This document shows, piece by piece, positions 22,456-30,443 of a stretch of DNA of 64,000 nucleotides; the stretch's first letter is position 1; every line of letters starts with the position of its first letter. The DNA is taken from positions 1 through 64,000 of the forward strand of contig DATMZR010000013.1 in NCBI GenBank assembly GCA_035573435.1, in the 5' to 3' direction. The notes under the pieces were generated by a model that had not been told where the DNA came from, did no database searches, and was given only the letters and a program-made list of their open reading frames with translations. The stretch comes from Solirubrobacterales bacterium. Its GTDB lineage: Bacteria; Actinomycetota; Thermoleophilia; Solirubrobacterales; 70-9. Both the position numbers and the translations under genes were made by a program.

Positions 22456-23886
22456 ATGACGGAGCTTCGACAGCTGGACGAGACGCTCTGGGAGATCCCG
22501 GCGAGCGACAGGCCGGACATGCGCGTTCCCGCGCGTGTGTTCGCCGACCCGGAGTTGCTCGACGCGATCCGCACGGATCGCTCGCTGGAGCAGCTCCAGA
22601 ATGTGGCCACGCTACCCGGCGTGATCGGGGCGGCCCTCGCGATGCCGGACATCCACCAGGGCTACGGATTCCCGGTCGGAGGGCTGGCGGCGACCGAGCC
22701 ACCCGATGGCGTCGTCTCCCCAGGTGGGGTTGGCTACGACATCAACTGCGGTGTGCGCCTGCTGGCGACCGCGATCACAGCCGACGAGCTGGGCGACCGC
22801 AAGGAGACGCTCGTTCACGAGATCGCCCGCCTGGTGCCGGCAGGCGCGGGGCGCGAGGCCGCCGTGAAGCTGAACGGAACCGAGCTCGACCGGGTCCTGC
22901 GAGGTGGGCCGGCGGCACTGCTGGAGCTGCGCGGTATCGGCACCGACGACGACGTCGAGCACACCGAGTCCGGGGGGCGGCTCGATGGCGCTGACCCGGA
23001 CACGGTCTCTCCGAGGGCGCGGCAGCGCGGCTCCGGCCAGCTCGGCACGGTCGGCTCCGGCAACCATTTCGTCGAGCTGCAGCGCGTGGCGCGCGTGCTG
23101 GACGAGCCGTGCGCACAGTCCTACGGCCTCGAGCCCGATGCCGTGACCGTCCTCATTCACTCGGGGTCGCGCGGCCTCGGGCACCAGGTGTGCACCGATT
23201 ACGTCAAGCGCATGGACGCCAACGTGGCCCGGCACGGGATCGAGCTCCCCGATCGGCAGCTGGCGTGCGCGCCGCTCTCGGCGCCCGAGTCACAGGACTA
23301 TCTCGGGGCGATGGCTGCTGCAGCCAACTTCGCCTGGGCGAACCGGGCTGCGATCGCGCACTCCGTCCGCAAGGCGATTCGCACCGTGCTCGGCACCGAA
23401 GCTGCCGCCTCCACCGGGCAGGTCTACGACGTGGCGCACAACGTCGCCAAGTTGGAGCCCTACGGCGGCAGGGAGCTCTGCGTGCATCGAAAGGGAGCCA
23501 CCCGGGCCTTTCCGCCGGGCCACGACGAGATCCCGCCCGACTATCGAGAGGCCGGGCAGCCCGTCTTCATTCCCGGTTCCATGGGCACGTCGAGCTTCGT
23601 GCTGGCGGGTCGCCAGGGGTCCATGCAGCGTTCGTTCGGCAGCACCTGCCACGGAGCGGGCCGCCGGATGAGTCGCACGGGCGCGCGCAAGAGAGTCCAG
23701 GGCGCCGAGCTTCGCCGGCAGCTCGAGGCGGACGGGATCACGGTTCGCTGCTCCTCGAACCGCGGCCTCGCCGAGGAGGCCCCGTTCGCCTACAAGGACG
23801 TCGAGTCGGTTGTGGAGATCGTCGAGCGTGCCGGGCTCGCGCGCCGGGTGGCCCAGCTCCGCCCCATCGGCGTCGTCAAAGGCTGA
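22456..23886 (+). CDS. rtcB: RNA-splicing ligase RtcB
   Basis: Joins RNA ends carrying 2',3'-cyclic or 3' phosphate to 5'-OH ends using GTP and Mn2+. 476 residues. Visible signatures: MPDIHQGYGFPVGGLAAT, VSPGGVGYDINCGVRLL (metal-binding Asp and Cys), VGSGNHFVE, IHSGSRGLGHQ and the guanylylated histidine in STCHGAGRRMSR. All key positions are intact. In bacteria the enzyme repairs tRNA or rRNA cut by stress ribonucleases; the adjoining archease supports an active ligase. Confidence 0.96.
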   Translation: MTELRQLDETLWEIPASDRPDMRVPARVFADPELLDAIRTDRSLEQLQNVATLPGVIGAALAMPDIHQGYGFPVGGLAATEPPDGVVSPGGVGYDINCGVRLLATAITADELGDRKETLVHEIARLVPAGAGREAAVKLNGTELDRVLRGGPAALLELRGIGTDDDVEHTESGGRLDGADPDTVSPRARQRGSGQLGTVGSGNHFVELQRVARVLDEPCAQSYGLEPDAVTVLIHSGSRGLGHQVCTDYVKRMDANVARHGIELPDRQLACAPLSAPESQDYLGAMAAAANFAWANRAAIAHSVRKAIRTVLGTEAAASTGQVYDVAHNVAKLEPYGGRELCVHRKGATRAFPPGHDEIPPDYREAGQPVFIPGSMGTSSFVLAGRQGSMQRSFGSTCHGAGRRMSRTGARKRVQGAELRRQLEADGITVRCSSNRGLAEEAPFAYKDVESVVEIVERAGLARRVAQLRPIGVVKG

Positions 23887-24937: not shown

Positions 24938-26131
24938 TTAAACGAGGTGCTCGCGGATTCGGGCCATCGCCTCCACGATCCGCTCGTCGGGGGTGGTCAG
25001 CGAGATGCGAAAGAACCCCTCCCCGCTGGGCCCGTACATCGATCCGGGCGAGACGACCACCGCGGCCTCGTCCAGGACATGTTCAGCGAACGAAACGGAG
25101 GTGTGCCCCGCGGGGACCGGCGCCCAGACGTAGATCGTCCCCTTGGGCGGCTCGATCGCAATGCCGACCTCCCGTAGCGCCCCCACGACCAGGTCGCGGC
25201 GACGCGCGTAGACCGCGTTCGTCTCTTCGATCGGCCCACGGGGACCGGTGAGCGCCGCCGCCCCCGCCAGCTGCACCGCGTCGAACAGGCCCGAGTCGAC
25301 GTTCGTCTTCAGGTGCCAGTAGGCGGCGATGGCGTCGGCGTTTCCGAGCACGGCGGCGCAGCGCCAGCCGGTCATGTTGAACCCCTTGGACAAAGAGAAG
25401 ACCTCCAGCCCCACCTCCTTGGCCCCGGGCGTCGCCAGGAAGCTCGGCGCCACGTAGCCGTCATAGGTGGTCTCCGAGTAGGAGTTATCGTGAACCACCA
25501 GGACCTCGTGTTGGTGGGCAAGCTCCACGACGCGTTCGAAGAACCCCTCGGGAACCACCGCCCCGGTGGGATTGTTGGGGTAGTTGAGGAACAAGAGCCG
25601 TGCCCGCGTCAGCGACTCCTCGGGAATGGCGCCGAGGTCGGGCACGAAGCCGAGCTCCGGGCGCAGCGGCATCAGCACCGCCTCCGCGCCGGCCAGGGCA
25701 GGTCCAGCCGTGTAGACGGGATAGCCCGGATCAGCGGCGAGCGCCAGGTCCCCGGGGTCGAGGAAGGCGAAGCAGAGGTTGTAGATGCACTCCTTGGCCC
25801 CAATTGCGGGCATCGCCTCGGACTCCGGATCGATCTCGACCCCGAAGCGCTCGGCATAGAACTCGGCGCAGGCGTTCCGGTACTCCTCGCGGCCGCGATT
25901 GGTTGGGTACCGGTGGTTGGCCGGATCCGCGACAGCCGTCTGCATCGCCTCGACCACATGCGGGAACGTGGGACGATCCGGGTCGCCGATCCCAAGGCTG
26001 ATCACGTCGACGCCCGCCTGGCGTTTCTCCGCGACGCGCCGCTCGAGCTCGGCGAACATGTAGGCGGGCACTGCCTCCAGGCGCCGAGAGGGTGCGACCA
26101 GGGCGGGCTTGGACGTCTCGGGGGTGGCCAT
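24938..26131 (-). CDS. dapL: LL-diaminopimelate aminotransferase (DapL-like)
   Basis: PLP enzyme that converts tetrahydrodipicolinate directly to LL-diaminopimelate, bypassing the acyl-blocked steps. 397 residues, class I/II aminotransferase fold. The N-terminus RLEAVPAYMFAELERRV and SLGIGDPDRPTFPHVVEAM is DapL-like. The PLP lysine lies in SLSKGFNMTGWR; NYPNNPTGAVV and HDNSYSETTYDG supply the PLP-binding Asn, Asp and Tyr. The dapF homologue and miaA lie just upstream on the same strand. Another aminotransferase specificity cannot be excluded, but the dap neighbours agree. Confidence 0.88.
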   Translation of the reverse strand: MATPETSKPALVAPSRRLEAVPAYMFAELERRVAEKRQAGVDVISLGIGDPDRPTFPHVVEAMQTAVADPANHRYPTNRGREEYRNACAEFYAERFGVEIDPESEAMPAIGAKECIYNLCFAFLDPGDLALAADPGYPVYTAGPALAGAEAVLMPLRPELGFVPDLGAIPEESLTRARLLFLNYPNNPTGAVVPEGFFERVVELAHQHEVLVVHDNSYSETTYDGYVAPSFLATPGAKEVGLEVFSLSKGFNMTGWRCAAVLGNADAIAAYWHLKTNVDSGLFDAVQLAGAAALTGPRGPIEETNAVYARRRDLVVGALREVGIAIEPPKGTIYVWAPVPAGHTSVSFAEHVLDEAAVVVSPGSMYGPSGEGFFRISLTTPDERIVEAMARIREHLV

Positions 26132-26179: not shown

Positions 26180-27019
26180 CTAGACGGTCTCCAGCGCGCG
26201 CACGAGCTCGGGCGACAGCTCGCCCTGGAACACCGGCTCCGCGGTCCCCGTCAGCCTCACCTCGAGGTTCTCGTCCACATCGACCTGAAGCTCTCCTCCG
26301 TCCAGCGTCACCACTATCGGGCTGCTCGCACCACGCAGCACCGCCGCCACCGCCGCACCGCTGGCGCCGGTCCCCGAGGACAGCGTCTCCCCCACTCCTC
26401 GCTCGAAGATGCGCGCCCTGACGGCGGAATCCGCGAACCTCACGAAGGAGACGTTGGTGCGGTTCGGAAACAGCTCGTTCCGCTCGATCTCGGGGCCGAC
26501 CGCGCTCAGGTCCAGCTCCTCAACCTCCTCGCCCGCCTCGATGACGCACTGCGGATTGCCGATCGACACATGTTGGAAGGCCCACCGGCGCCCGCCTACC
26601 GCAACCACGCCGCGGCCGTCGGCGCCGCCGGAGGGAAAGTCGGCGGAGCTCACCGACGCCCTGCCGATTGCCAGGGTTGCCGTGTCCGACGCGGTGATGG
26701 CAGGGCGAATCTCGCCCGCCTTGGTGAGGATCGAGAACTCGTCGGTGTCCGTCCAGCCGGCACGCCGTAGGTAGAGCGCCGCCTGCCGCGCCCCGTTGCC
26801 GGAGAGCTCGGCCTCCGAGCCGTCCGGGTTGAAGATCCGCAGCTCGGCTACCTGGCGCGGGTCCTGAGCCGGCGAGAGCAACAGGATCCCGTCGGATCCG
26901 ATCCCGAAGTGCGGGGCGCACAGGCGCCGCACCCGCTCGGCAGTGAGCTCCCACGGCAGGCCGCCGGCCTCGACGATCACGTAGTCATTGCCGAGCGCCT
27001 GCCACTTCTCGAACCGCAT
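26180..27019 (-). CDS. dapF: Diaminopimelate epimerase homologue lacking catalytic residues
   Basis: 279 residues, full DapF length. DapF turns LL- into meso-diaminopimelate with two cysteines (73 and 217 in H. influenzae). Substrate-binding residues are kept: Asn11 (LGNDYV), Asn64 (FNPDGSE), the TN of RTNV and ERG (Glu206-Arg207). The catalytic positions are not: SGNGARQ has Gln79 for Cys73, TLSSGTG has Ser215 for Cys217, and GNPQCV has Gln157 for the catalytic His. I checked these codons (CAG, TCG, CAG) on the DNA. The frame is unbroken. It may be a non-epimerase DapF relative or use another mechanism; ATG 27019 follows TAGCTT by 7 bases. Confidence 0.9.
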   Translation of the reverse strand: MRFEKWQALGNDYVIVEAGGLPWELTAERVRRLCAPHFGIGSDGILLLSPAQDPRQVAELRIFNPDGSEAELSGNGARQAALYLRRAGWTDTDEFSILTKAGEIRPAITASDTATLAIGRASVSSADFPSGGADGRGVVAVGGRRWAFQHVSIGNPQCVIEAGEEVEELDLSAVGPEIERNELFPNRTNVSFVRFADSAVRARIFERGVGETLSSGTGASGAAVAAVLRGASSPIVVTLDGGELQVDVDENLEVRLTGTAEPVFQGELSPELVRALETV

Positions 27020-27063: not shown

Positions 27064-27951
27064 TCAGCCGTCGAGGGCCGCGACGACCTCCGCCGCGACG
27101 CTGCGGTCGTCGCGGCCGGTGCAGTGAACCAGCTCGACGCCGGGCATCTTGCGCATCCAGGTGAGCTGGCGGCGCGCGTAGGCGCGATGCGCTCGCTTGA
27201 CCCCCTCCGCATCGCCGGCCAAGAGCTCGTCGAAGCCGAGCGCCGCGCGGGCGGTGCGAGAGGCGCCGGCTTCGGCAGCCCGCCGCGCCTCCCCCGCGGC
27301 ACCAGCGGCGATCATCTCCTCCACCCTCGCGTCGATCCGGCGCCCCAGCTCCTCGCGGTCGATGGTGAGGCCGACCAGGAACGTGGGGCGGCGGAGCCTC
27401 GCCGTCCAGAGCTGTTCGCTTCCTTGTGGCGGATCGACCCCGGCGCGCTGGAGCTCGAGGGCCCGGGCGATCCGCTTTCGGTCCCTGGGATGAACCGTCG
27501 CCGCGACGTCCGGGTCGAGCTCGCCATGGAGCGCCTCGGGACCCTGGGCGGCGATTGCGGCCTCGACCTCTACCCGCAGCTCGGGCGGGACCGGCGGTCG
27601 AAGGTCGAGGTCCGCGAGAGCGGCGCGCAGGTAGAGCCCGGTGCCCCCGACCACGATTGGCCGTCGCCCCTCCGCCAGCAGCTGATCGATCTCCGTGTGC
27701 GCCAGGCTCGCGAACTGCCCGGCGCTGAACTCACCCCTGACGTCCACGAAGCTGACGAGGCGGTGCTCCAGATGCGACCGCTCGCCAGGTGTGGCTGTGC
27801 CGGCGAGCGTCTCGAGTCCCCGATACACCTGGATCGCGTCGCAGGAGACGGCGACGGGGTCCTCCTCGCGTCCGCGCAACAGCTCGGCGACGGCAACCGC
27901 AACCGCCGTCTTCCCGATCCCGGTCGGGCCGAATATCGCCAGAACCTTTAG
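27064..27951 (-). CDS. miaA: tRNA dimethylallyltransferase MiaA, no canonical start codon
   Basis: Adds dimethylallyl to A37 of tRNAs reading UNN codons. The P-loop is FGPTGIGKTAVA, followed by SCDAIQVYRGLE, GGTGLYLRA and the C-terminal TWMRKMP. Homologues begin directly before the strand leading to the P-loop. Here that place (before KVLAIFGPTG) holds CTA at 27951, with GAGGG 7 bases upstream; the next candidate is CTG 27942. No ATG, GTG or TTG occurs in frame for at least 180 bases upstream. An ACG at 28020 has a strong GGAAGGAG 8 bases ahead. The start given is therefore provisional (about 295 residues). The stop is 44 bases before dapF. Confidence 0.85.
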   Translation of the reverse strand, partial: LKVLAIFGPTGIGKTAVAVAVAELLRGREEDPVAVSCDAIQVYRGLETLAGTATPGERSHLEHRLVSFVDVRGEFSAGQFASLAHTEIDQLLAEGRRPIVVGGTGLYLRAALADLDLRPPVPPELRVEVEAAIAAQGPEALHGELDPDVAATVHPRDRKRIARALELQRAGVDPPQGSEQLWTARLRRPTFLVGLTIDREELGRRIDARVEEMIAAGAAGEARRAAEAGASRTARAALGFDELLAGDAEGVKRAHRAYARRQLTWMRKMPGVELVHCTGRDDRSVAAEVVAALDG

Positions 27952-28180
27952 TTCGTATCCCTCGATGGCTTGGTCAAGCGGTTGATGCGCCAGTGACCGC
28001 CAACTCTTCCACGACTGCGTCGAGTTTTCTCCTTCCCCCCTAAAGTGTCCTTGGCTGACGCAGACCGTTTCGGGGCCGACAGCGCGGGAAAGTGAGCCTT
28101 TAGCGCACTCGATGAGGGACGAGGCAGCAGGGATGCCAGATGCCGACAGCGATGCAACAACCCAGGCGCGGGAGCCGCAT

Positions 28181-28873
28181 ATGCCCCTGACTGCAGCGCT
28201 TCGCCGGTACAGCTTCCGACTCCGCAGGGGACTGGAGACCCACGGAGTTCTCGCAGTTGCGGCCCTAGCGGTTGGCCGGGTGTTCTCCATCGACGTGGAA
28301 CACGTGTGGTACGCGCTCGATCTCCAAGGCGTTGAGCCGCTGACGCTGGCCGCGGGTTACTACCTGCACCGGGGGACGCAGGCGGATACCGAGTTACTTC
28401 GCGAGCTGCCGGCGGTCCCGGTCGAGGAGGGTCGGCGCCGGGTCGCGGACGGGGACCAGCTCTGGTTCGTACTCAAGGAGCGTGAGCCGGCTTTCGTCTG
28501 TTTCTGCTTTTTGAGGGGGTTTCGGCTCGAGGCGGCTCGTGGTGGCTGGTACGAGCTTCCCGACGGCGTCGCCTGCCTCGAGAACAGCCTCGCCAGCCCC
28601 AAGCACCGGGGACACGGAATCGCCCCGGCCTCATGGGCCGGGATCGCGGCAAACCTTCGCGACGACGGGTTCGAGGTGCTGATCACCAGAGCCGAGGTCG
28701 AGAACGTCGCAGTGCGTCGGGCCCTGGAAAAGATCGGTTTCCGGGCAGCCGGCGTCATGCACCGTAGCCGCCGCGGCGTGCGTAGCCGGGTCGTCTTCCG
28801 CGACGAGAGCACGGAGCTGACGGAGGCTGAACGGACGGCCGTGGCCGACCTGAAGCTCAACGTGTCCCGCTGA
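28181..28873 (+). CDS. GNAT-family acetyltransferase-like protein
   Basis: 230 residues from ATG 28181, which has GGGAG 6 bases upstream; ATG 28133 and 28112 are alternatives. The C-terminal half carries a GNAT core: SPKHRGHGIAPASWAGI (the acetyl-CoA loop R-x2-G-x-G/A) and ENVAVRRALEKIGFRAAGV. The N-terminal half is variable and lacks membrane segments. The acceptor substrate is unknown. It lies divergent from miaA, and its leader overlaps the region where the miaA start should be. Confidence 0.78.
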   Translation: MPLTAALRRYSFRLRRGLETHGVLAVAALAVGRVFSIDVEHVWYALDLQGVEPLTLAAGYYLHRGTQADTELLRELPAVPVEEGRRRVADGDQLWFVLKEREPAFVCFCFLRGFRLEAARGGWYELPDGVACLENSLASPKHRGHGIAPASWAGIAANLRDDGFEVLITRAEVENVAVRRALEKIGFRAAGVMHRSRRGVRSRVVFRDESTELTEAERTAVADLKLNVSR

Positions 28874-29120: not shown

Positions 29121-30443
29121 TCAGCTGAGTCTGGCGCTCAGCAGCTCGTGCCCAGACAGGGTTGTGGACGTCGCGTCAGTGATCTCGACCTCGACGAGTT
29201 CCCCGGGCTCGGCGGTGCCCTCGAAATTGACGATCTTGTTGTGGCCCGTCCGGCCCCGAAGCCGGGACGGATCGGTCCTGCTCGGCCCCTCGACCAGCAC
29301 CACCATGGTTCGCCCGATGAAGCGCTGGGCGCGCTCGCGGGCGCGGCGCTGGACCAGCTGCACCAGGCGCTCCATGCGCTCTCGCTTCACGGGGTGTGGG
29401 ACCTGGTTCGTCATCGTCGCTGCCTCGGTGCCACGACGCGGCGAGAAGATGAACGTGAACGCCCCGTCATATCCCACCGCGTCGGCGACCTCCAGGGTCT
29501 CGGCGAAGTCTTCCGCCGTCTCGCCGGGGAAGCCGACGATGATGTCCGTGGTCAGCGCGCAATCCGGGATCTGCTCGCGAATCTGAGCGACGCGGTCTAG
29601 ATAGCGCTTCCGGTCATAGGTTCGCCGCATCGCCTTCAGGATCCGGCTGGACCCCGACTGGAGGGGCAGGTGGATGTGCTCGCAGAGCGCCGGCAAATCG
29701 GCGTGGGCGCGGATCACATCTGCGCGGATGTCCTTGGGATGCGGACTCGTGTAGCGGATCCGGTCGATGCCGTCAACGGCATCGACGCGCGACAAGAGCT
29801 CGGCGAACGTCATCCGCTCGTGCTTCGGCAGGTCGCGCCCGTAGCTGTTCACGTTCTGGCCCAGCAGGGTCACCTCGCGGACTCCGTCGGCGGCGAGCGT
29901 CTCGATCTCGGCGAGCAGTGCCCCTGGCCGCCGGCTCACCTCCCGCCCGCGCGTCTGCGGGACGATGCAGTAGGCGCAGACGCAGTTGCAACCCACGGAG
30001 ATCTGGACCCACGCCTGGAACTCCCGCGCACGCTTCGCCGGCAGGTGGCCCGAAAAGTCCTCGAACTCGAAGTAGCCCTGCGCGGTGAGCGAGTCCTGGG
30101 TCAGGAACTCGGCCAGCCGGTGGATCTGCCCTGGGCCGAACGCCACGTCCACGAACGGGAAGCGCTCGAAGACCTCCTCCTTGACCGACTGGGCCCAGCA
30201 GCCGCCGACCCCCACCACACGGTCGGGATCTTCGGACTTCAGCCGCTTCGCCTCGCCCAGATGGGCGACGAAGCGGTTGTCCGCCGATTCGCGGATGGAG
30301 CAGGTGTTGAAGAGGATCAGATCGGCCGACGCTCGCTCAGCGGCCTCCTGATAGCCGAGCGATTCGAGCATCCCCTTCATCCGCTCGGAGTCGTGCTCAT
30401 TCATCTGGCAGCCGAACGTGGTGACGTGGTACCGCATTGGCAT
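29121..30443 (-). CDS. miaB: tRNA-2-methylthio-N6-dimethylallyladenosine synthase MiaB
   Basis: Radical-SAM enzyme that thiomethylates the i6A37 made by MiaA. 440 residues. The N-terminal UPF0004 domain has three cysteines for the auxiliary cluster (TFGCQMNEHDSE, FNTCSIRE, VGGCWAQ). The radical-SAM motif is VGCNCVCAYCIVP (Cx3Cx2C). GQNVNSYG, HLPLQSGS and a C-terminal TRAM domain (ELVEVEITDATSTTLSGHEL) complete it. Its partner miaA is the next minus-strand gene but the divergent GNAT gene lies between them. Confidence 0.97.
   Translation of the reverse strand: MPMRYHVTTFGCQMNEHDSERMKGMLESLGYQEAAERASADLILFNTCSIRESADNRFVAHLGEAKRLKSEDPDRVVGVGGCWAQSVKEEVFERFPFVDVAFGPGQIHRLAEFLTQDSLTAQGYFEFEDFSGHLPAKRAREFQAWVQISVGCNCVCAYCIVPQTRGREVSRRPGALLAEIETLAADGVREVTLLGQNVNSYGRDLPKHERMTFAELLSRVDAVDGIDRIRYTSPHPKDIRADVIRAHADLPALCEHIHLPLQSGSSRILKAMRRTYDRKRYLDRVAQIREQIPDCALTTDIIVGFPGETAEDFAETLEVADAVGYDGAFTFIFSPRRGTEAATMTNQVPHPVKRERMERLVQLVQRRARERAQRFIGRTMVVLVEGPSRTDPSRLRGRTGHNKIVNFEGTAEPGELVEVEITDATSTTLSGHELLSARLS

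What the first reader, a model, noticed from the sequence alone, without database searches (positions are those of the whole stretch)
26180..27019. DapF homologue with all catalytic residues replaced but substrate pocket kept
Read directly: Gln79 stands for Cys73, Ser215 for Cys217 (with Ser220 for the next conserved Cys) and Gln157 for the catalytic His of H. influenzae DapF. Asn11, Asn64, the RTN Asn and Glu206/Arg207 are kept. The two-cysteine deprotonation mechanism is established for DapF; without it this protein cannot work that way. Options: the organism keeps LL-DAP in its wall, another epimerase exists, or the protein evolved a new reaction on a DAP-like ligand. It sits with miaA and dapL, so it is not a stray pseudogene.
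Basis: partly seen in the sequence, partly recalled or inferred. Interest (0 to 1): 0.82.

Follow-up and report, generated by a model that had tools for sequence, protein, structure and literature searches.

The report
Diaminopimelate epimerase with serines, not cysteines
In an entire order of soil bacteria the only copy of the enzyme thought to flip diaminopimelate for cell walls and lysine has both textbook-essential cysteines replaced by serine and its histidine by glutamine, yet those bacteria are reported to have the flipped product in their cells, so the textbook chemistry probably has a cysteine-free alternative.

Summary
Confirmed with a correction. All DAP-contacting residues are kept. 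It is neither a pseudogene nor private: all 129 Solirubrobacterales DapFs examined, including isolates, are Ser/Gln/Ser. In this genome and in ten named relatives it is the only DapF. These organisms keep full-length LysA and MurE with meso-DAP motifs, and lack DAP dehydrogenase (1 of 61 order genomes has one). Published chemotaxonomy reports meso-DAP for the order, including Solirubrobacter deserti CPCC 204708, whose only DapF is Ser/Gln/Ser. Elsewhere in Actinomycetota the two catalytic positions hold only Cys or Ser, in all four combinations, with at least 10 changes on the tree. Best reading: a working thiol-free DAP epimerase with a serine pair at the catalytic helix N-termini, a new variant of the DapF/proline-racemase fold, where natural Ser/Cys epimerases and Ser/Thr dehydratases are known. 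Main rival: an unidentified second epimerase. No activity has been shown; engineered single Cys-to-Ser changes in related enzymes leave under 0.1% activity, so how a Ser/Ser pair works is the open, directly testable question.

The parts
26180..27019 (-). dapF homologue, 279 aa, catalytic positions Ser73 / Gln157 / Ser215 (for Cys73 / His159 / Cys217 of H. influenzae and E. coli DapF)
   Evidence: AlphaFold2 pLDDT 97.3; best PDB match 9mro DapF, TM 0.90
26801..26803 (-). codon of Ser73 (aligned with catalytic Cys73), directly before helix 74-86
   Evidence: coordinate computed from the ORF start at 27019
26549..26551 (-). codon of Gln157 (aligned with His159 of GNPH)
   Evidence: coordinate computed from the ORF start at 27019
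26375..26377 (-). codon of Ser215 (aligned with catalytic Cys217), directly before helix 216-228
   Evidence: coordinate computed from the ORF start at 27019
24938..26131 (-). dapL-type LL-diaminopimelate aminotransferase, 48 bases downstream of dapF
   Evidence: NF006756 530.8 bits over cut-off 507; TIGR03540 514 bits, under its cut-off 593; dapL-like neighbour in 100 of 116 order loci
27064..28290 (-). miaA (ORF; the MiaA domain begins near residue 117 of this ORF), upstream neighbour of dapF
   Evidence: TIGR00174 151.9 bits over cut-off 148.65; neighbour in 111 of 113 order loci
29121..30443 (-). miaB, same strand upstream of miaA
   Evidence: TIGR01574 506 bits; also upstream in about 40 relatives

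Best explanation
The gene encodes the organism's working DAP epimerase, a thiol-free form of DapF. LL-DAP made by DapL binds in the usual pocket: proximal carboxylate at the N-termini of the two opposed helices, distal amino acid held by Asn64, Asn155, Asn189, Glu206 and Arg207. The alpha-proton is exchanged between Ser73 and Ser215, which occupy exactly the places of Cys73 and Cys217, with one serine acting as base (alkoxide stabilised by the helix N-terminus) and the other as acid. The meso-DAP produced feeds MurE and LysA. Shown here: sequence, order-wide conservation, pocket conservation, helix-cap position in a confident model, single copy in this genome and in ten named relatives, downstream meso-DAP users, and near-absence of DAP dehydrogenase. 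Inferred: that the enzyme epimerises DAP, and the serine-pair chemistry, including the role of Gln157.
For: 1. 129/129 Solirubrobacterales DapFs are Ser73/Gln157/Ser215 at 65% mean pairwise identity. Ser is written with both TCN and AGY codons at both sites, so the amino acid is what is held. DapF evolves about as slowly as MurE in the same genomes (62.6% v 63.7%). 2. Every DAP contact listed for Anabaena DapF (PMC12039745) is kept. 3. Only DapF in this genome and in ten named genomes of isolates or strains; one full-length copy in the other order genomes searched (one possible extra in G094). 4. LysA over cut-off in 59/61 order genomes, with EPGR and CESGD motifs in those aligned and in this genome. 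MurE over cut-off in 60/61, all 20 aligned with DNPR and GKGHE. DAP dehydrogenase in 1/61 and 0/10. 5. Meso-DAP is reported for the order (PMC3035278) and for S. deserti CPCC 204708 (PMC10722151), whose sole DapF is Ser/Gln/Ser. 6. Among 102 other DapFs (101 of Actinomycetota plus E. coli) the two positions are only ever Cys or Ser: 54 CC, 29 SS, 14 CS, 5 SC, with at least 10 state changes on the tree. The 30 SS/His genomes tested also lack DAP dehydrogenase, and 29 have LysA. 7. The fold has precedent: natural Ser/Cys 4-hydroxyproline epimerase and Ser/Thr dehydratase with catalytic Ser (PMC4113996). 8. Model pLDDT 97.3 with Ser73 and Ser215 immediately before helices 74-86 and 216-228; best solved match is closed DapF 9mro, TM 0.90.
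Against: No activity has been measured. Engineered single Cys-to-Ser mutants of the DapF relative PddB keep under 0.1% of activity, said to match Cys-to-Ser M. tuberculosis DapF (PMC8225329); HisR C67S and C209S are greatly reduced (PMC11602996). The histidine replaced here is called essential in PMC5885031. A serine hydroxyl is about 6 pKa units weaker an acid than a thiol, and no compensating base was identified. The meso-DAP data rest on hydrolysates of cultured relatives, not on the window's organism, which is known only from its genome.
Confidence: 0.7

Rival explanations
1. The Ser/Gln/Ser protein is a catalytically weak or dead DapF kept for another role (LL-DAP binding, regulation or complex formation), and a second, unrecognised epimerase, for example a PLP-dependent or broad-specificity amino acid racemase, makes meso-DAP.
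For: Engineered Cys-to-Ser changes nearly abolish activity in related enzymes. Meso-DAP users are present, so some epimerase must exist.
Against: No DapF paralogue and almost no DAP dehydrogenase. The only Asp/Glu-racemase-family protein of this genome looks like MurI, with both Cys motifs ACNS and GCTH kept. The DAP pocket and the dapL neighbourhood are conserved. A dead enzyme would not be expected to hold Ser at both catalytic positions in 129/129 sequences. Alanine-racemase-type PLP enzymes were not searched.
Confidence: 0.17
2. The protein has a new reaction on a DAP-like ligand, for example one-base dehydration, isomerisation or another epimerisation, as happened with Ser/Thr dehydratases of the proline racemase superfamily.
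For: In that superfamily, changed catalytic pairs can go with changed chemistry: Ser/Thr in trans-3-hydroxyproline dehydratase (PMC4113996). His159 is also replaced, and in this sample only in this order. DapF-like proteins have become histidine, O-ureidoserine and diaminobutyrate racemases.
Against: Both DAP ends are still recognised by the same residues; the gene stays with dapL; it is the sole DapF in organisms that need meso-DAP; Ser/Ser lineages that keep His also live on one DapF with LysA and no DAP dehydrogenase.
Confidence: 0.08
3. The organism does not need meso-DAP: it keeps LL-DAP in the wall and obtains lysine in another way, so the epimerase has been released from constraint.
For: DapL yields LL-DAP directly, and LL-DAP walls exist in other actinobacteria (general knowledge).
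Against: Meso-DAP is reported for all Solirubrobacterales (PMC3035278) and for S. deserti (PMC10722151). LysA keeps diaminopimelate decarboxylase motifs and MurE keeps DNPR. There is no relaxation: DapF is as conserved as MurE.
Confidence: 0.04
4. Pseudogene, recent decay or sequencing error.
For: None beyond the loss of textbook residues.
Against: Identical state in 129 sequences, including isolates; intact ORF; conserved synteny.
Confidence: 0.01

Closest known systems
Canonical two-cysteine diaminopimelate epimerase DapF (TIGR00652 / PF01678; H. influenzae 1gqz, Anabaena 9mro, C. glutamicum 5h2g)
   Same: Family HMM over cut-off, whole fold (TM 0.90 to 9mro), all DAP-contact residues, pathway neighbourhood with dapL, single copy beside LysA and MurE.
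   Different: Both catalytic Cys are Ser and the active-site His is Gln, so no thiolate/thiol pair is possible. It also could not form the catalytic disulfide that switches C. glutamicum DapF (PMC5296763).
Ser/Cys 4-hydroxyproline 2-epimerase and Ser/Thr trans-3-hydroxyproline dehydratase of the proline racemase superfamily (B9JQV3, B9K4G4; PMC4113996)
   Same: Same two-domain fold; a natural serine stands at a catalytic cysteine position and acts in proton transfer.
   Different: They have one serine with Cys or Thr opposite, act on hydroxyproline and are far in sequence; here both residues are Ser and the DAP pocket is intact.
Aspartate/glutamate racemase EcL-DER with Cys/Thr pair (reviewed in PMC8142540)
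   Same: A cofactor-independent two-base racemase in which one catalytic Cys is naturally replaced by a hydroxyl residue.
   Different: Different fold; only one replacement; its reaction became one-directional, unlike a reversible epimerase.
DapF-fold histidine racemase (CntK/HisR), O-ureidoserine racemase and Dab racemase PddB
   Same: DapF-like proteins with the same fold.
   Different: Those whose residues were read here (CntK, HisR, PddB) keep the Cys pair and act on other substrates; Cys-to-Ser changes reduce HisR and PddB strongly.

Membership tests
DapF (TIGR00652 / PF01678) by homology | Whole-protein HMM score above the curated cut-off | tested here: met
   192.3 bits v 114.65; both PF01678 halves over cut-off
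DapF (TIGR00652 / PF01678) by homology | DapF two-domain fold | tested here: met
   AlphaFold2 pLDDT 97.3; 9mro TM 0.90, top 12 hits all DapF
DapF (TIGR00652 / PF01678) by homology | DAP-binding residues (Asn11, Asn64, Asn155, Asn189, Glu206, Arg207, Thr217) | tested here: met
   contact list from PMC12039745
Canonical two-thiol DAP epimerase | Two catalytic cysteines (Cys73, Cys217) | tested here: not met
   Ser73, Ser215; Ser in 129/129 order members
Canonical two-thiol DAP epimerase | Active-site histidine (His159, GNPH) | tested here: not met
   Gln157 in 129/129; His in 102/102 others
DAP epimerase (by function) | Interconverts LL- and meso-DAP | not testable with these tools
   Only indirect: sole DapF, meso-DAP users present, meso-DAP reported for the order
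Proline racemase superfamily, Ser/Cys or Ser/Thr subgroups | Catalytic serine opposite Cys or Thr, hydroxyproline substrate pocket | tested here: not met
   Ser opposite Ser; DAP pocket; structural matches to hydroxyproline epimerases and dehydratases rank below DapFs (TM about 0.70-0.75)
PhzF | Catalytic Glu/Asp/His set of PhzF | not tested
   PhzF structures rank well below DapFs (TM about 0.70); residues not mapped

The most novel reading that the evidence does not exclude
A naturally evolved, fully thiol-free and histidine-free cofactor-independent amino acid epimerase: two serines at opposed helix N-termini perform the two-base proton transfer on DAP. This solution spread through an order and, with Ser/Ser, Ser/Cys and Cys/Ser relatives, changed repeatedly within Actinomycetota, so cysteine is not required for the DapF reaction. 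A possible advantage, untested, is resistance to the oxidative disulfide switch known for Cys/Cys DapF.
Probability: 0.62. Interest if true: 0.85.

Novelty: new variant of a known kind. Interest (0 to 1): 0.7.

Why it matters
How a weak thiolate (pKa near 8) removes an alpha-proton (pKa near 29) is a standing puzzle of DapF-type enzymes, and textbooks and inhibitor design rest on the two-cysteine pair. An order that reportedly makes meso-DAP with a Ser/Ser/Gln enzyme would show that thiols are dispensable in a natural DapF. It would supply a redox-insensitive comparison enzyme, identify sequences in which other changes have compensated for Cys-to-Ser, and warn that covalent thiol-directed DapF inhibitors cannot work on many Actinomycetota. 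If the protein instead proves inactive, an unknown DAP epimerase must exist. Either answer is new and needs only one purified protein. No paper found in the held library describes natural serine DapFs; subscription papers could not be checked.

Tried and rejected
Pseudogene or decay: rejected (129/129 conserved, isolates included, synteny kept). Second dapF: none in the own genome or in ten named genomes; the divergent second DapF-like ORF of relative G094 (L033, Cys-containing) is a single case, possibly another family or contamination, and was not pursued. DAP dehydrogenase: 1 of 61 order genomes, 0 of 10 named, 0 of 30 Ser/Ser/His genomes. A compensating cysteine: Cys34 is invariant in the order but also common in Cys/Cys DapFs; Cys158 is absent in 3 of 129, so neither is a plausible new base. 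General loss of catalytic Cys in the genome: rejected, MurI keeps both Cys. Co-varying residues with Ser/Ser (Ala8, Leu72, Ala80, loss of Glu191): seen in both large Thermoleophilia Ser/Ser groups, but a tree-based paired test has too few independent events to be significant, so no claim is made. The tree does not establish that the two Thermoleophilia Ser/Ser groups arose independently (SS needs 3 changes, 2 forced by well-supported branches). A survey of other phyla was attempted and not possible; 'only Cys or Ser' holds for the Actinomycetota sample plus E. coli.

Full report
WHAT IS THERE. Window 26180-27019, minus strand, encodes a 279-residue protein that is unmistakably of the DapF family: TIGR00652 192.3 bits against a cut-off of 114.65, and E-values down to 1e-44 to DapFs of known structure. 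Aligned to those and to E. coli DapF, catalytic Cys73 is Ser73, catalytic Cys217 is Ser215 and His159 is Gln157. The residues that touch both ends of DAP in the Anabaena DapF-inhibitor complexes (PMC12039745) are all present: Asn11, Asn64, Asn155, Asn189, Glu206, Arg207 and Thr217.

WHERE IT IS. The window lies in a 2.58 Mb genome, 97% complete. The order is therefore Solirubrobacterales in the GTDB sense, and the window's family is the one that holds 70-9 (inference).

CONSERVATION. 98 of 101 near relatives, and 64 of 64 good-quality ones, have a match. Of 129 order sequences read residue by residue, all 129 are Ser73/Gln157/Ser215, at a mean pairwise identity of 65%. They include isolates of Solirubrobacter, Conexibacter, Patulibacter, Svornostia and Paraconexibacter, so this is no assembly error. 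Both serines are written with TCN and with AGY codons, and the protein is about as conserved as MurE. miaA lies upstream in 111 of 113 loci with room and a dapL-like gene downstream in 100 of 116.

THE PATHWAY STILL NEEDS MESO-DAP. In 61 order genomes, LysA is over its cut-off in 59 and MurE in 60. The LysA sequences aligned and this genome's own LysA carry the diaminopimelate decarboxylase motifs, and the 20 MurE aligned carry DNPR and GKGHE. DAP dehydrogenase, the known bypass, is found in 1 of 61 and in 0 of 10 named genomes. This genome and all ten named genomes have only this DapF. Published chemotaxonomy states that meso-DAP is the diagnostic amino acid of all Solirubrobacterales (PMC3035278) and reports it for Solirubrobacter deserti CPCC 204708 (PMC10722151). 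That genome is among the ten and carries Ser/Gln/Ser. So an epimerase works in these cells, and the only recognisable candidate lacks both thiols and the histidine.

A WIDER PATTERN. In 102 other DapFs (101 from across the phylum plus E. coli) the two catalytic positions are always Cys or Ser: 54 Cys/Cys, 29 Ser/Ser, 14 Cys/Ser and 5 Ser/Cys. A tree built without these columns needs at least 10 changes of the pair. His159 is His in all 102; Gln is, in this sample, a mark of Solirubrobacterales alone. Thirty genomes with Ser/Ser/His also lack DAP dehydrogenase, and 29 have LysA. Repeated Cys/Ser exchange at both catalytic positions, never Ala, Gly or Thr in this sample, is what one expects if Ser can do the job.

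STRUCTURE. The AlphaFold2 model has mean pLDDT 97.3 and places Ser73 and Ser215 directly before helices 74-86 and 216-228, the helix-cap places of the catalytic thiols. The best solved match is closed Anabaena DapF 9mro (TM 0.90); the top 12 matches are all DapF structures, followed by O-ureidoserine racemase among further DapFs, and well ahead of PhzF and hydroxyproline enzymes.

MECHANISM. The best reading is a working DAP epimerase with a serine pair. The steps shown are pocket, position, conservation, copy number and pathway need; the chemistry is inferred. For it: in the same fold a natural Ser/Cys 4-hydroxyproline epimerase and a Ser/Thr dehydratase use a catalytic Ser (PMC4113996). Against it: engineered Cys-to-Ser changes leave under 0.1% activity in PddB, said to match M. 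tuberculosis DapF (PMC8225329), HisR mutants are crippled (PMC11602996), and the replaced histidine is called essential (PMC5885031). Residues that changed together with Ser/Ser (positions 8, 72, 80, 191) may be compensation, but this could not be shown statistically. C. glutamicum DapF is switched by a disulfide between the catalytic cysteines (PMC5296763); a serine pair could not be. This is a possible advantage, untested.

RIVALS. An unknown second epimerase with this protein dead or repurposed is the main rival (about 17%). The one Asp/Glu racemase-family protein of the genome looks like MurI with both its Cys motifs; alanine-racemase-type enzymes were not searched. A new reaction (about 8%), an LL-DAP lifestyle (about 4%) and decay (1%) fit the data less well.

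NOVELTY. By homology this is a DapF; by the defining catalytic residues it is not a canonical one. It is best filed as a new variant of a known kind, pending an assay. No description of natural serine DapFs was found in the open-access library, which does not hold most subscription papers.

Noticed in passing
L066, L067, L211, L222-L229, L231-L233, L235-L244 (families f8 and f59 of the class): A second Thermoleophilia group has Ser/Ser with His kept and, in most members, the helix cap changed from SGTG to SGTS or SGSS, also as the only DapF.
   Followed up: partly
L082, L083, L245, L246, L247 (families f43 and f46 of the phylum): A third, distant Ser/Ser/His DapF group in Actinomycetota, with LysA present and no DAP dehydrogenase.
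   Followed up: partly
L070, L072, L075, L078, L079, L087, L248, L256, L259-L264 (Cys/Ser) and L058, L085, L095, L208, L251 (Ser/Cys): Single Cys-to-Ser DapFs, possible evolutionary intermediates and natural half-mutants.
   Followed up: partly
L033 (G094 C165:5078-5854): A divergent second DapF-like protein with CGNG and GCATG motifs in one order genome; another family or contamination.
   Followed up: no
L106 (G028 C1:346057-346512): The only DAP dehydrogenase found among 61 order genomes; that genome also has the Ser/Gln/Ser DapF (L009).
   Followed up: no
window 22456-23886 (+): RtcB-related protein whose best family match is the intein-containing RtcB model, though aligned mainly to that model's C-terminal part (positions 578-961); no intein was looked for.
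   Followed up: no
window 27064-28290 (-): The miaA ORF has about 115 extra N-terminal codons before the MiaA domain; the true start is probably well inside it.
   Followed up: no
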